Shown in pieces: positions 12,810 through 17,087 of a stretch of DNA of 64,000 nt. Each line of letters opens with the position of its first letter. The first letter of the stretch is position 1. The position numbers and the translations under genes were made by a program. The notes beneath the pieces are model-generated. The model was not told where the DNA came from. It searched no databases and worked only from the letters and a program-made list of their open reading frames with translations. The stretch spans positions 1-64,000 of the forward strand of contig JABLUY010000042.1 of assembly GCA_013306675.1 (NCBI GenBank). Reading direction: 5' to 3'. This DNA comes from Thraustochytrium sp. TN22 (Eukaryota; Sar; Bigyra; Thraustochytrida; Thraustochytriidae).

Positions 12810-15800
12810 CTATTCATGCCTGCGCAAAATGTGGACCGCGCCGGACTTGTCGCCGAGAATGGCCGCGTCCTGGAAGGACGCAATGGCCGTCACAGGGAAG
12901 TCTGTGGTGAAGCCGATGCCGCCGCCACTTGTGCCCGCGATCTCTACATGGCGCGAAGACTTGAGGACGAGCAAAAGCTCCTGCGCAGCCGGAGGAGGCG
13001 TATCAGAGAGACTCTCCCCGGTGCGAGGATCCCAGACACGGGTCTCGTCTGTAGAGCGGGAGACAAGGCGACCAGAGACCAGAGACACGCCCCTGACAGG
13101 GTTGGTATGGCCAGCGAGCACGTGCAGCTGCTCGCCAGACTGCTGGTCCCAAATTCGTACGACGCAGTCCTTGCAGCCCGAGACCACGACGTCGCCGTCC
13201 AGGGCAACCGCAAGGGCCGGCACCCCGGGCCGCGATTCGCTGGTCAACTCATGGACTCGCTCGCCGGTGCCGAGGTCGACCACCAGCACCGCTCCAGCCA
13301 GCCGACTCGACCAGGCCAGGCCATAGGCAAGAGCCACAAAATCGCCATGAATTGCAACGCTGTTGACCGTTGCACGATGGCCCTTCACTCGATGGAGAAG
13401 CTCGCCCGTGCGCACATCCCAGACGAGCGCACTGCAGCTTCTCAGCGCTTGTGAGGATGCGGAGACGGCGCGCAAGCCGTCCAGAGCGACGCACGAGATC
13501 GATACCCCGTGGCCCAGCGGAACCCGAGACCGCACGTCCCCCGGGCGCACGTCCAACACGTACGCCGTAGAGTGAGACCCAATCGCCACCCAGTCGCCGT
13601 CCTGCGCCATGTGCACAGCGCCGTAAGCAGGAAGAACCTGCATCTCGGTGCCAGTCTCGCGATCCCAGATGCTCAGAAAACTAGGATCGTTCCAGAACTT
13701 CCCGGGCAAGGTTGAAAATATGCGACTGCCCTGCGCCGCCACGCACCTCGCGCCGGTCAACCCCCCAACCGGACCGTGTAGAACGCGCAACTGGCTGCCG
13801 CTGTGCACATCCCAGATGCGCACACCAGCATCGGAAGACCCCGACACCAGGGTATCTTCGTCATGAAACGCCACGCTCGTAACGCCGAAGCCGTGGCCCT
13901 CCAGCACGCGGAGGCAGTCTCCTGACTGCGCGGACCAGATGCGCACCGTCTTGTCCTGCGATCCGGAGGCGACCAGCGAGTCCTTCAGTGCCACGCTCGT
14001 GACGGTGTCACTGTGCGCCTCCAGCGTCGCAGCCGGATGCGTCTCGACGCGCAGATCCCAAACCCCCAGCAGCACGTGCAACGCTGAGCCCGAGTCTACG
14101 GACCAAATACGGACGCTCCGATCCACGGATGCGGACACCATGCGGTCACCCCCAATCACGATGCTTGTTACCCTCGAACCATGTCCGCGGAGCCCAAACC
14201 GCTTCACGCCTGTACGCAGGCTCCACGCCTGCACCGTGCCGTCGAAGCACCCGGCAGCGACCAGGTCGCCATCGATTGCGACGCAAGTGACCGCGGCGGG
14301 GCTGTCCCGGATGACTCGCTCCTCCCTTCCCGTGAGCGCGTTCCAGACGCGCACCGTCCAGTCTGCTCCGCCCGTGATGGCCCGCTCTCCCTGAAGTGCC
14401 ACGCTTGTCGAGATGCTGGCCTCCACGTCCGCCTTTCGCCGTGAACGTCTGGCCTGCCAATGCCCACGTAGGACATGTACGAGGGGACCTCGACCACCTA
14501 GGCTGTGCGTGACAGGCCTGAGCCACGCACGTCCGTCCGCTGGAGGCATCTGCATGCTCGCGACAAGTGGGTGGTCCTCACCCTGGTCCCCAAACCGAGC
14601 CATCACCTGTGAAGCGAGTTCGGCAGGGTCCAAGATCAGAACCTCTTGGATCCTCTTCAGGAGCCAGGGCGTGTCGCTCTCGTGCTCAGCGCAGAGGCCC
14701 AAGGCCTCGCAATCAAGCAGGAGGCTGTCGATGGCGCGCCGCCGCCGCCGCTCGTCCACCTGCGAGACAGCTCGCTCCACCCAACCAAAGTCGTTGAGGA
14801 GCTCCAGCGCTTCCTCTCGCCGCCCGCACTCGAGTAGGTGATGCACCGCGTTGCGCAGCATAAAGTCGCCCGTCGGGAGCGCCAGCGCTACTGTGCTCAG
14901 TGATGCATGCCCCCCTCTGGCATCTGCCACGCGAGATTCCATCAGCCAGTCCACCAGGCATCTGTGAGCGATGGTTGCATGGCCTTCCTCGGTCGTGTAC
15001 AACAAGCCTCGGCACTCGCGCACAAGCTGCGATGCCGTCTGCTCGGACTGTGTGCCTAAAACGGCGGCCAAAACAGACTTTGGTAGCGGTTCCCTCGCAG
15101 CAACGACAGCGGCCAGCACACGCTCGAGCTGACCCGCGCCGCCCGGATGCTGCCCCTGCACTCGCGCGAAGAGGGCTCCCAGCATGGCGTGCAGGCCGGT
15201 CGGGAGCCACTCTTGGCTCTCCACGCAGGCTCGAGGCAAGGCTGCGCCCGTTTCCAAGTCCATCTGGCGCCGCGCGCGTCGCAGCATCTCCGGGACAAAG
15301 CTGGCCCACAGAAAGAGTCCTTCCGAACGCTCGCCCAGCACGTCCGCAAGCGCGTCCGCCTCACTTTCCGCAACCTCGACGCGGAGTACCTGCCGCAGAT
15401 GGTCCCGCACATCCGCCAAGCTCGCGTCCTTGGTGACTTCCAGCACCCGGGACCGCTCCGTTGGCACAGCCTCAGGGCCCGGCGCCGTCCCGGCTCGCGC
15501 GCTCACGACCAGACACAGCCATGATGGTAGCCGCGTCAGCCATTTCAGAGCAAGGACCTCCTTCATGAGCTCAGGCGCAGTGCTGCACTCGTCCAGGCCG
15601 TCTAGAACGACAACCTGCCGTACCTGAGGAGTGCTGACCCGGTTGGCCGGTCTTGCCAGGACCGCCTCAAAGACCTCCGTCAGCGCCTCCAGGCTTTGCC
15701 CCGGATGCTCCGGCTGGCTCAACTCCTCCGCCAACATGTCCGCAAATCCTGGCACGACCGAGCACAGCTGCCACGCGACGCTCTTGAGCGCCGTTGCCAG

Positions 15801-17087
15801 CGGTTGGCTCGCCGCTAGGTCGTGCCGGAAGAAGTGCATTGCCGCCACGGGAACCGGCGCGCGCTCCGTTCCGCTGCGGCGCCACAGCCGACGGAGGACC
15901 GAGACACGCGGCCGCCCACGTGACATGCTGGTGCCCAGTGCGCCACCGCGCAAGCACACCTCTGCGAGAACGGTGCTCTTGCCGACACCACCCTCGCCCC
16001 GAACCACGAGCACGCGCTCGTCGCCCGACGCGTACCAGTCCGCGATTGCGTCCAGCGCCCAGCGCCGAGATCCCGGCGAGTATGCGGATGCCTTGCGCCG
16101 CGCCCATCGCGTCGAGTCCATCGGGTCAAGTTGCGCGCGCACCGAGTCCAAGCTGCTCGCAGCGGGGTCCTCCGCTTCGGCACAGAACTTGATCGCGCGG
16201 GCCAGCTCGGCCACGGAGACCGCTGTGACCTCACCAAGGTCCACCACGGCCGCGGGGCCCACGTCTAAGCTCTGGCTCGCGTCTGGCTCCAGCAAGGCGT
16301 ATACCACGCGCCTCTCCTCCCGGTCCCTGGCATAGGTTAGCTGGGCCATGCAGGCGTCCTCGCCCTCGACGTAGCGCCGCGTGCCCAAGCAAACAAACAC
16401 CTTGGACCGCTTGATGCCCGCGACGATGGCCTCGTCCAGCACTTCACAAGGTTCATTCGGGTCCACGCGAAGCCACACGCGCAGACCGTGGGCTGCCTCG
16501 AGCTGCAGCGCGACGTCTTGCGCGGCGGCACGCGCGCCCCACTCATGCGAGAGGAAGGCATCCCAGTCCTGCACATCGTCACGGTCCATCTGCTTGAGTA
16601 AGATCGCCTCGGCAAGCGTCGCGCCGTCCACCTTATCGAGCTCGTGCGCGTCCAAGTAGCGCTCGTTGGCAAGTTGTCTACGAAGCGCGCCTGTCCAGGC
16701 CTTTTGGGCCAGCATACGTGCCTCCACCACGACGGGCAAAACCGCGTGCGGCAGTGTCTCGAATACCCGCTCAAAGGACGCATGTTGCGCAGCTTCCGCC
16801 TGCATGGCCTCGCTCACAATAACAAGCACCGCGACCCGCGACGAGCCCAGCGTCACCTCGTCCTCCCCAGTTGCCATGACGAAGGGCGTCTCGGCATGCG
16901 GCTGGAGCTTGTCGCGCAACAGCAGAGCGACCTCGCTGTCGCTTTCTGCGAAGACAAACACGACCTGCAGGTCTCCAAGAAGCGACTTGACAGGAGGTGG
17001 CGCGCGGCAGCCCGCGGCGGGTACTGCCGACTGTCCGCCGCCGCCGCCGCCGCGCCGACGTGCCACACGCGAGGTGGTCGTGCCCAT
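12810..17087 (-). CDS. STAND/NLR-like protein: two TIR-like domains, NACHT ATPase, WD40 repeats
   Basis: A 1425-residue multidomain protein. Residues about 38-135 form a first TIR-like fold (VVFVFAESDSEVALLLRDKL...VLVIVSEA). Residues 173-275 form a second (DWDAFLSHEW...IKRSKVFVCLGTRRY...ALLEP). A NACHT-type ATPase follows with Walker A GEGGVGKST near 364-372 and Walker B VVVLDGLDE near 492-502, then a helical region of about 400 residues, then about a dozen WD40 units (RVWNALTG, RIWSVDSG, RIWDVHSG, RIWDQQSG and others) to the end. Such STAND proteins are signal-dependent oligomerising switches in immunity or cell death. In the second TIR-like domain the residue aligned with the catalytic Glu of TIR NADases (WCxxEL) is Gln 249 (ACMAQL), so enzyme activity is doubtful. 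The ligand is unknown. The ATG at 17087 follows a Kozak-like context. The gene is divergent from the CNB protein. Confidence 0.85.
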   Translation of the reverse strand: MGTTTSRVARRRGGGGGGQSAVPAAGCRAPPPVKSLLGDLQVVFVFAESDSEVALLLRDKLQPHAETPFVMATGEDEVTLGSSRVAVLVIVSEAMQAEAAQHASFERVFETLPHAVLPVVVEARMLAQKAWTGALRRQLANERYLDAHELDKVDGATLAEAILLKQMDRDDVQDWDAFLSHEWGARAAAQDVALQLEAAHGLRVWLRVDPNEPCEVLDEAIVAGIKRSKVFVCLGTRRYVEGEDACMAQLTYARDREERRVVYALLEPDASQSLDVGPAAVVDLGEVTAVSVAELARAIKFCAEAEDPAASSLDSVRAQLDPMDSTRWARRKASAYSPGSRRWALDAIADWYASGDERVLVVRGEGGVGKSTVLAEVCLRGGALGTSMSRGRPRVSVLRRLWRRSGTERAPVPVAAMHFFRHDLAASQPLATALKSVAWQLCSVVPGFADMLAEELSQPEHPGQSLEALTEVFEAVLARPANRVSTPQVRQVVVLDGLDECSTAPELMKEVLALKWLTRLPSWLCLVVSARAGTAPGPEAVPTERSRVLEVTKDASLADVRDHLRQVLRVEVAESEADALADVLGERSEGLFLWASFVPEMLRRARRQMDLETGAALPRACVESQEWLPTGLHAMLGALFARVQGQHPGGAGQLERVLAAVVAAREPLPKSVLAAVLGTQSEQTASQLVRECRGLLYTTEEGHATIAHRCLVDWLMESRVADARGGHASLSTVALALPTGDFMLRNAVHHLLECGRREEALELLNDFGWVERAVSQVDERRRRRAIDSLLLDCEALGLCAEHESDTPWLLKRIQEVLILDPAELASQVMARFGDQGEDHPLVASMQMPPADGRAWLRPVTHSLGGRGPLVHVLRGHWQARRSRRKADVEASISTSVALQGERAITGGADWTVRVWNALTGREERVIRDSPAAVTCVAIDGDLVAAGCFDGTVQAWSLRTGVKRFGLRGHGSRVTSIVIGGDRMVSASVDRSVRIWSVDSGSALHVLLGVWDLRVETHPAATLEAHSDTVTSVALKDSLVASGSQDKTVRIWSAQSGDCLRVLEGHGFGVTSVAFHDEDTLVSGSSDAGVRIWDVHSGSQLRVLHGPVGGLTGARCVAAQGSRIFSTLPGKFWNDPSFLSIWDRETGTEMQVLPAYGAVHMAQDGDWVAIGSHSTAYVLDVRPGDVRSRVPLGHGVSISCVALDGLRAVSASSQALRSCSALVWDVRTGELLHRVKGHRATVNSVAIHGDFVALAYGLAWSSRLAGAVLVVDLGTGERVHELTSESRPGVPALAVALDGDVVVSGCKDCVVRIWDQQSGEQLHVLAGHTNPVRGVSLVSGRLVSRSTDETRVWDPRTGESLSDTPPPAAQELLLVLKSSRHVEIAGTSGGGIGFTTDFPVTAIASFQDAAILGDKSGAVHILRRHE

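What the first reader, a model, noticed from the sequence alone, without database searches (positions are those of the whole stretch)
12810..17087. TIR-like/TIR-like/NACHT/WD40 STAND protein with Gln in place of the catalytic Glu
Seen: two successive TIR-like folds, a NACHT ATPase with intact Walker A and B, and about a dozen WD40 units in one 1425-residue intronless gene. The second TIR-like domain keeps the WDAFLSHEW start and the RSKVFVCLG strand, but the position of the NADase Glu is Gln 249 (ACMAQL). Known: TIR-STAND proteins act in innate immunity and regulated cell death, and the Glu is needed for NAD cleavage. Inferred: a scaffold-type TIR that recruits partners rather than cleaves NAD, in a unicellular flagellate. 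The doubled TIR order is unusual.
Basis: partly seen in the sequence, partly recalled or inferred. Interest (0 to 1): 0.75.

Follow-up and report, generated by a model that had tools for sequence, protein, structure and literature searches.

The report
Catalytically dead TIR-NACHT-WD40 receptor-like protein
A single-celled eukaryote, probably a thraustochytrid, has a large family of immune-receptor-like proteins, and this gene is a member that lost the catalytic residue its relatives keep, so it probably works as a non-enzymatic partner or regulator of them.

Summary
One open 1425-aa frame encodes a degenerate TIR (39-167), a TIR (173-300), a NACHT ATPase with intact Walker motifs, and WD40 repeats, with Gln249 at the NADase Glu position. 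It is one of 32 related loci scored in its 37.9-Mb genome. Of 27 comparable TIR domains readable in these loci, 25 have Glu, this one Gln, and one lost the segment; Glu is one of only three columns invariant in the 25, so E-to-Q looks derived. The doubled TIR is not unique: eight genes share it. The predicted structure shows two flavodoxin-like domains; TIRs rank first in the fold search, with weak E-values. Best reading: an intact non-NADase member that joins oligomers with Glu-bearing paralogues, as in plant RRS1/CHS3-type pairs (inferred). Unexpectedly, 13 paralogues have homogenised WD40 units whose variation concentrates at four positions that correspond to those under selection in fungal HET-D/HET-E; the window gene lies outside this regime. 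The organism is probably a thraustochytrid (inferred). New variant of a known kind.

The parts
12810..17087 (-). whole gene, 1425 aa, single open frame
   Evidence: Pfam
17037..17087 (-). N-terminus MGTTTSRVARRR..., resembles an N-myristoylation signal plus basic patch (motif recalled, not tested)
   Evidence: sequence; motif from recall
16587..16973 (-). TIR1, degenerate TIR-like domain (res 39-167); no Glu conserved at the catalytic place across its family copies
   Evidence: family HMM; alignment; structure; fold search; a paralogue's Pfam hit
16188..16571 (-). TIR2, TIR_2 domain (res 173-300)
   Evidence: structure
16341..16343 (-). codon CAG, Gln249, where 25 of 26 other readable family domains have Glu and one lacks the segment
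15975..15998 (-). Walker A GEGGVGKS (res 364-371)
   Evidence: alignment A2
15588..15614 (-). Walker B region VVVLDGLDE (res 492-500)
   Evidence: alignment A2
14460..16094 (-). NACHT ATPase and following helical region (res 332-876)
13008..14408 (-). WD40 region, 10 units found, some partial (res 894-1360); mean identity of the 9 full units 0.34, the lowest of 30 frames scored

Best explanation
The gene encodes a TIR-TIR-NACHT-WD40 STAND protein of the immune-receptor type that has lost TIR NADase activity. Proposed mechanism: the WD40 propeller holds the NACHT module closed; a ligand opens it; the NACHT domain with its intact Walker motifs oligomerises together with Glu-bearing paralogues; the window protein's TIR2 joins the TIR assembly without contributing an active site, so that it acts as a dedicated partner or regulator while a paralogue makes the NAD-derived signal. 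Shown here: domains, intact Walker motifs, the lost Glu against the family, altered BB and CD loops, long intact frame. Inferred: loss of activity, oligomerisation, partnership, an immune or non-self-recognition role.
For: Glu is present in 25 of 27 catalytic-type TIRs of the fetched family frames, window Gln, L039 segment deleted. Glu is one of three columns invariant in the other 25, and the window keeps 11 of the 15 columns conserved in at least 80% of them. The window also has two extra residues in the BB loop and lacks 6-7 residues before the catalytic helix that most relatives have. The Walker A Gly and Lys and the Walker B Asp are invariant in all 13 sequences aligned, the window among them. 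On a 29-row NACHT tree the gene sits with L033 and L039 (SH-aLRT 90) inside a nine-row group (SH-aLRT 100), and on that tree Glu is lost twice. A 1425-codon open frame on a long branch (1.05) argues for a selected protein rather than a decaying copy. Precedents: RRS1 lacks the catalytic Glu, and CHS3-CSA1 oligomerise as a pair with the executor's active sites (PMC11298796, passages); human NWD1, NWD2 and NPHP3, TIR-like next to NACHT, were inactive in an assay in which TEP1 was active (PMC13174449, preprint, passages).
Against: No partner gene lies beside it: the only TIR_2 and NPHP3_N hits on contig C364 are in this gene, unlike head-to-head plant pairs. No expression, interaction or activity data. 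The window branch is long and its letter make-up is flagged as unlike the alignment's, so relaxed constraint is possible; 90 is a modest support from a short tree search. The 25 Glu domains are not all independent (L034/L035, L013/L014 and L010/L016/L031 are near copies). A single base (CAG/GAG) decides the call and reads could not be checked. 103 of the 126 TIR_2 stretches of the genome were not read.
Confidence: 0.45

Rival explanations
1. Scaffold TIR: the TIRs recruit downstream TIR or other adaptor proteins by contact, with no enzyme anywhere in the pathway.
For: Gln249 and a degenerate TIR1 leave no known active site; animal Toll-like receptor TIRs are thought to be mainly scaffolds (PMC13142454, preprint, passage); the two best structural matches are MAL and TLR1.
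Against: Close relatives with the same architecture keep Glu, so the family's default output looks enzymatic; no adaptor was identified.
Confidence: 0.22
2. Inhibitory decoy: the dead TIR poisons assemblies of active paralogues and sets a threshold against self-damage.
For: Same sequence facts; an intact NACHT with a dead effector is what a dominant negative would need.
Against: No direct evidence; sequence cannot separate an activating from an inhibiting partner.
Confidence: 0.15
3. Other chemistry: the conserved Cys246 (Cys-x-x-Glu spacing in relatives) supports a nucleotide-synthetase-like or other activity without the Glu.
For: Cys is kept in the window and in 23 of the other 25 domains. 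In plant TIRs a cysteine beside the Glu matters for 2',3'-cNMP synthesis (PMC9153377, passages); amoeba TirD was toxic in yeast independently of its putative Glu (PMC13142454, preprint, passage); a Nicotiana TNL without the Glu still confers insect resistance (PMC12856790, passage).
Against: [quoted passage not shown]
Confidence: 0.08
4. Gene under relaxed constraint, or an assembly error at one base.
For: CAG is one base from GAG; the window branch is long; L039, in the same trio, has lost the whole segment.
Against: 1425 codons stay open and the Walker residues are intact; the neighbouring BB and CD loops are changed too, so the site is not an isolated oddity.
Confidence: 0.1

Closest known systems
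Plant paired TNLs RRS1/RPS4 and CHS3/CSA1 (PMC11298796, passages)
   Same: TIR plus nucleotide-binding STAND module; [quoted passage not shown] intact P-loops of CHS3 and CSA1 are needed for oligomers
   Different: NB-ARC and LRR, not NACHT and WD40 (recalled); one TIR per protein; linked gene pairs, whereas no linked partner is seen here
Animal TEP1, NWD1, NWD2, NPHP3 (TIR-like DUF4062 next to NACHT, several with WD40; PMC13174449, preprint, passages)
   Same: TIR-like domain before NACHT, with WD40 in several; three of the four inactive in vitro
   Different: TIR-like domain is DUF4062 and single; here it matches PF13676 and is doubled; no TROVE among the 25 of 46 Pfam families shown
Fungal NWD/HNWD non-self receptors HET-D and HET-E (PMC1805685, PMC2873952, PMC4986451, passages)
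   Same: NACHT plus WD40; in paralogues of the window gene, homogenised repeats with four hypervariable positions
   Different: HET effector domain there, TIR here; different eukaryotic lineage if the organism is a thraustochytrid; the window gene itself lacks the homogenised repeats
Dictyostelium TirE (PMC13142454, preprint, passage)
   Same: two diverged tandem TIRs in an amoeba
   Different: RCC1 repeats; NACHT and WD40 not mentioned in the passage

Membership tests
TIR domain (PF13676) | profile match over the curated cut-off | tested here: met
   TIR2: 48.4 bits against cut-off 28; TIR1 of the window: no match
TIR domain (PF13676) | flavodoxin-like TIR fold | tested here: met
   pLDDT 87.1, pTM 0.85; TIR structures at probability 1.00 with TM by target 0.54-0.71, but no match at E 0.001 or better, unrelated folds between them, and no statement of which domain matched; TIR1 alone is less specific
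Catalytic TIR NADase | catalytic Glu | tested here: not met
   TIR2 has Gln249; TIR1 has no Glu conserved at that place, though window Glu113 lies about one residue off
Catalytic TIR NADase | NAD cleavage | not testable with these tools
   needs an assay
STAND/NLR-type NACHT-WD40 protein | NACHT with Walker A and B | tested here: met
STAND/NLR-type NACHT-WD40 protein | C-terminal sensor-type repeats | tested here: met
   WD40 units 894-1360
STAND/NLR-type NACHT-WD40 protein | ligand-triggered oligomerisation, immune role | not testable with these tools
   none available
Fungal NWD/HNWD regime | homogenised WD40 units with four hypervariable positions | tested here: not met
   window gene: mean unit identity 0.34, lowest of 30 frames scored, L038 next at 0.35 on three units; met by 13 paralogue frames
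RRS1-type Glu-less partner TNL | genetically linked Glu-bearing partner | tested here: not met
   no other TIR_2 or NPHP3_N hit on contig C364
RRS1-type Glu-less partner TNL | hetero-oligomer with a Glu-bearing protein | not testable with these tools
   needs biochemistry
TEP1/NWD DUF4062 proteins | DUF4062 domain | tested here: inconclusive
   not among the 25 of 46 Pfam families shown; of the window's two TIR domains scanned alone, one gave TIR_2 only and one nothing

The most novel reading that the evidence does not exclude
A probable thraustochytrid carries a TIR-armed NLR-type non-self recognition system whose WD40 sensors diversify as those of fungal HET-D/HET-E do (unit exchange between genes, four hypervariable propeller-surface positions). 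The window gene is a fixed, enzymatically dead member that has left this regime and serves as a common partner or brake for the fast-evolving, Glu-bearing members.
Probability: 0.3. Interest if true: 0.85.

Novelty: new variant of a known kind. Interest (0 to 1): 0.6.

Why it matters
Glu-less TIR receptors are known from plants, but here the change can be polarised inside one genome against 25 Glu-bearing domains of the same family. The wider family suggests that a probable stramenopile reached the sensor-diversification scheme of fungal allorecognition genes with a TIR instead of a HET effector. If true, a single-celled protist runs a diversifying NLR-type recognition system, which could be tested if it can be cultured.

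Tried and rejected
Doubled TIR as a unique feature: rejected, eight genes share it. Origin from bacteria or viruses: a scan of genome contigs with the TIR-TIR alignment gave one weak hit over 52 residues (Chloroflexota, L040, not followed) and viral contigs none. The scans used one and two short peptide patterns, so the origin stays open. NCBIfam and PADLOC gave nothing for the whole protein. Fungal genome (chytrid): Fungal_trans 0 hits, but its 14 controls also rang nowhere; Zn_clus 7 hits; not decisive. Ten ACP matches 327 bases apart in one 3044-aa frame point to a thraustochytrid PUFA synthase (family link recalled). Pairwise alignment as a check of the Gln column: 22 of 26 Glu, 2 Tyr (L013, L014), 2 Gln (L039, L030); L013, L014 and L030 score low there and show Glu in the HMM alignment, and L039 has the deletion. 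Foldseek on TIR1 alone: CENP-M ranks first, MAL second; BtpA TIRs, arginine decarboxylase and receiver domains also match, so TIR1's identity rests mainly on the HMM links. A permutation test of the four WD40 positions gave 0 of 20000, but the positions had been picked from the same data; redid it held-out. The rRNA search for taxonomy failed twice.
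Full report
WHAT IS THERE. The minus-strand frame 12810-17087 is open for 1425 codons, while the other five frames of the stretch carry 13 to 32 stops. Pfam places TIR_2 at residues 178-285, NPHP3_N (a NACHT-type ATPase) at 340-512 and WD40 propeller families over about 890-1360 (25 of 46 families shown). Family HMMs place TIR1 at 39-167, TIR2 at 173-300 and NACHT plus helical region at 332-876. The Walker A Gly and Lys and the Walker B Asp are invariant in the 13 sequences aligned, the window among them. 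Residue 249 is Gln, codon CAG. Neighbours are an Rgp1-like gene downstream and a cyclic-nucleotide-binding-domain gene upstream. This gene holds the only TIR_2 and NPHP3_N hits on contig C364.

THE GENOME. The window is 64 kb of contig C364 in a 37.9-Mb assembly of 453 contigs. A family locus lies beside a frame that reads to me like a tubulin-tyrosine-ligase-type protein (L036; not tested). Ten ACP matches, 327 bases apart, lie in one 3044-aa frame; from recall that is the mark of thraustochytrid PUFA synthase. Fungal_trans gave no hit (but nor did its controls) and Zn_clus gave seven. I treat the organism as a probable thraustochytrid; this is inference, and two rRNA searches failed.

THE FAMILY. 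A whole-genome protein search gives 119 matching stretches at 32 loci by my count, with 33 of 264 candidates scored, so a lower bound. TIR_2 has 126 matches in the genome, 114 of them over the cut-off, and NPHP3_N 46. Doubled TIRs are in eight genes: the window gene, L034, L035, L036, L037, L038, L039 and L033, which carries the pair twice in one 2034-aa frame. L034 and L035 are nearly identical and may be allelic; the contig ends inside L037 and L039. Searches with TIR1 alone find these loci plus short matches on C75, C365 and C432 and a weak one in C87/L021 (12 matches, 21). On a 29-row NACHT tree (short search) the doubled genes, with L021, form one group of nine rows with SH-aLRT 100, and the doubled arrangement needs one change. 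Three tree rows without a second TIR (L021, L024, L028) were left out of both counts of changes.

THE CATALYTIC POSITION. Of the 23 TIR_2 stretches that lie in fetched loci, 20 have Glu, the window has Gln, L039 lacks the segment, and one is a TIR1. With a family HMM, 27 catalytic-type domains score above 50 bits; 25 have Glu, the window Gln, and L039 a deletion. That HMM was built from 22 such stretches, the window's among them. Only three columns are invariant in the other 25: Tyr239, the Glu at 249 and Leu295 in window numbering; the window keeps the Tyr and the Leu. It keeps 11 of 15 columns conserved in at least 80%. A cruder pairwise check gave Glu in 22 of 26; the exceptions were L039 and three low-scoring alignments. 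The window also has two extra residues in the BB loop and lacks six or seven before the catalytic helix that most relatives have. On the tree Glu is lost twice, in the window gene and in L039, whose close sister L033 keeps it. TIR1 has no Glu conserved at that place; in the window Glu113 lies about one residue off.

FOLD. AlphaFold2 with eight family sequences gives two alpha/beta domains for residues 38-303, mean pLDDT 87.1, pTM 0.85. Among the 50 rows shown of 1127, Foldseek lists TIRs (MAL, TLR1, RUN1, BtpA, PdTIR and others) at probability 0.93-1.00 and TM by target 0.52-0.71, apart from the long C. elegans TIR-1 chain (0.17). The best E-value is only 2.3e-3 and unrelated proteins stand between them. 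TIR1 alone gives pLDDT 88 and matches CENP-M first, then MAL, with BtpA, arginine decarboxylase and receiver domains also listed. So TIR2 is a TIR by sequence and consistent by fold. TIR1 is TIR-like; its ancestry rests on HMM links of E 1e-4 to 2e-8, over part of the domain, on matches of a paralogue's TIR1 to other TIR_2 loci such as C344 and C6, and on one sub-threshold Pfam hit of a paralogue.

MECHANISM. The most economical reading is a STAND protein with a working nucleotide-dependent switch and a dead effector. In plants RRS1 lacks the catalytic Glu, and CHS3-CSA1 oligomerise as a pair in a model where the executor supplies the active sites (PMC11298796, passages). Human NWD1, NWD2 and NPHP3, which put a TIR-like domain next to NACHT, were inactive where TEP1 was active (PMC13174449, preprint, passages). 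A Nicotiana TNL without the Glu still confers insect resistance (PMC12856790, passage). I therefore favour a dead partner or regulator of Glu-bearing paralogues (0.45) over a pure scaffold (0.22), an inhibitor (0.15), a relaxed or mis-assembled gene (0.10) and other chemistry through Cys246 (0.08). Against the last, reviews state that the Glu, or the same active site, is needed for 2',3'-cNMP synthetase activity too (PMC9153377; PMC9528080; passages). The N-terminus MGTTTSRVARRR suggests myristoylation and membrane attachment; that motif is recalled and untested.

AN UNEXPECTED CONTRAST. WD40 units are much alike within several paralogues (mean identity of full units 0.93 in L016, 0.87 in L009, 0.84 in L012), while the window gene has the lowest value of 30 frames scored, 0.34, with L038 at 0.35 on three units (two further frames had too few units). 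The unit HMM was seeded from only two units, so diverged units may be missed. In 13 frames with at least six 39-residue units and mean identity of 0.6 or more (0.62-0.96), the four most variable positions, chosen each time from the other 12, are always 5, 7, 21 and 23. Held-out, on distinct units, pN and pS at these positions are 0.56 and 0.50, against 0.10 and 0.26 elsewhere. pS is raised there too, and the genes share ancestry, so this shows strong diversification or relaxation at these sites, not formal proof of positive selection. Of 176 units in 24 frames, 65 have their nearest unit in the same frame, which fits exchange between genes, though recent gene duplicates add to it. In Podospora, codons 7, 9, 25 and 27 of the unit are under positive selection, each pair flanking a consensus residue at 8 or 26, on the top surface of the propeller (PMC1805685 and PMC2873952, passages). 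Here the pairs flank a conserved Val (6) and Asp (22), the same structural places by my reading of the unit motif; no structure of these propellers was made. The window gene does not take part.

WHAT IS KNOWN. A search of the open library for thraustochytrid with TIR domain found no paper. One for WD40 repeat, concerted evolution, NACHT and stramenopile (three of four terms) listed eight papers, on fungi, on repeat evolution in general and on corals (listing only). Most subscription papers are not in that library, so this does not show that nothing is in print.

VERDICT. The gene is a derived, probably non-enzymatic member of a large TIR-NACHT-WD40 family, a new variant of a known kind. The family is the more surprising part.

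Noticed in passing
L009, L010, L011, L012, L015, L016, L017, L019, L020, L027, L031, L032, L033 (WD40 regions): Homogenised WD40 units with the same four most variable positions (5, 7, 21, 23) in all 13 frames, corresponding by my reading to the places under positive selection in fungal HET-D/HET-E.
   Followed up: partly
own genome, 126 places listed: Large TIR repertoire (114 over the Pfam cut-off) for a 37.9-Mb protist genome; 103 of the 126 stretches were not read.
   Followed up: no
L033 1218-7322: One 2034-aa frame with TIR1-TIR2-part NACHT followed by a complete TIR1-TIR2-NACHT-WD40: an in-frame tandem fusion of two receptors.
   Followed up: partly
G000 contig C160, 1247-4627: Four TIR_2 matches exactly 1043 bases apart, each reported with one TGA in the frame: a tandem array of TIR pieces.
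   Followed up: no
G000 contig C124, 29160-32300: Ten ACP matches 327 bases apart in one 3044-aa frame, probable PUFA synthase, the main hint that the organism is a thraustochytrid.
   Followed up: no
window 17037-17087 (-): N-terminus MGTTTSRVARRR resembles a myristoylation signal plus basic patch (recalled motif); L033 has MGTKAS at its second Met.
   Followed up: no
L039 (contig C379): Near copy of the L033 receptor with two in-frame deletions in TIR2, one removing the catalytic segment: a second, recent loss of Glu; the contig ends inside the gene.
   Followed up: partly
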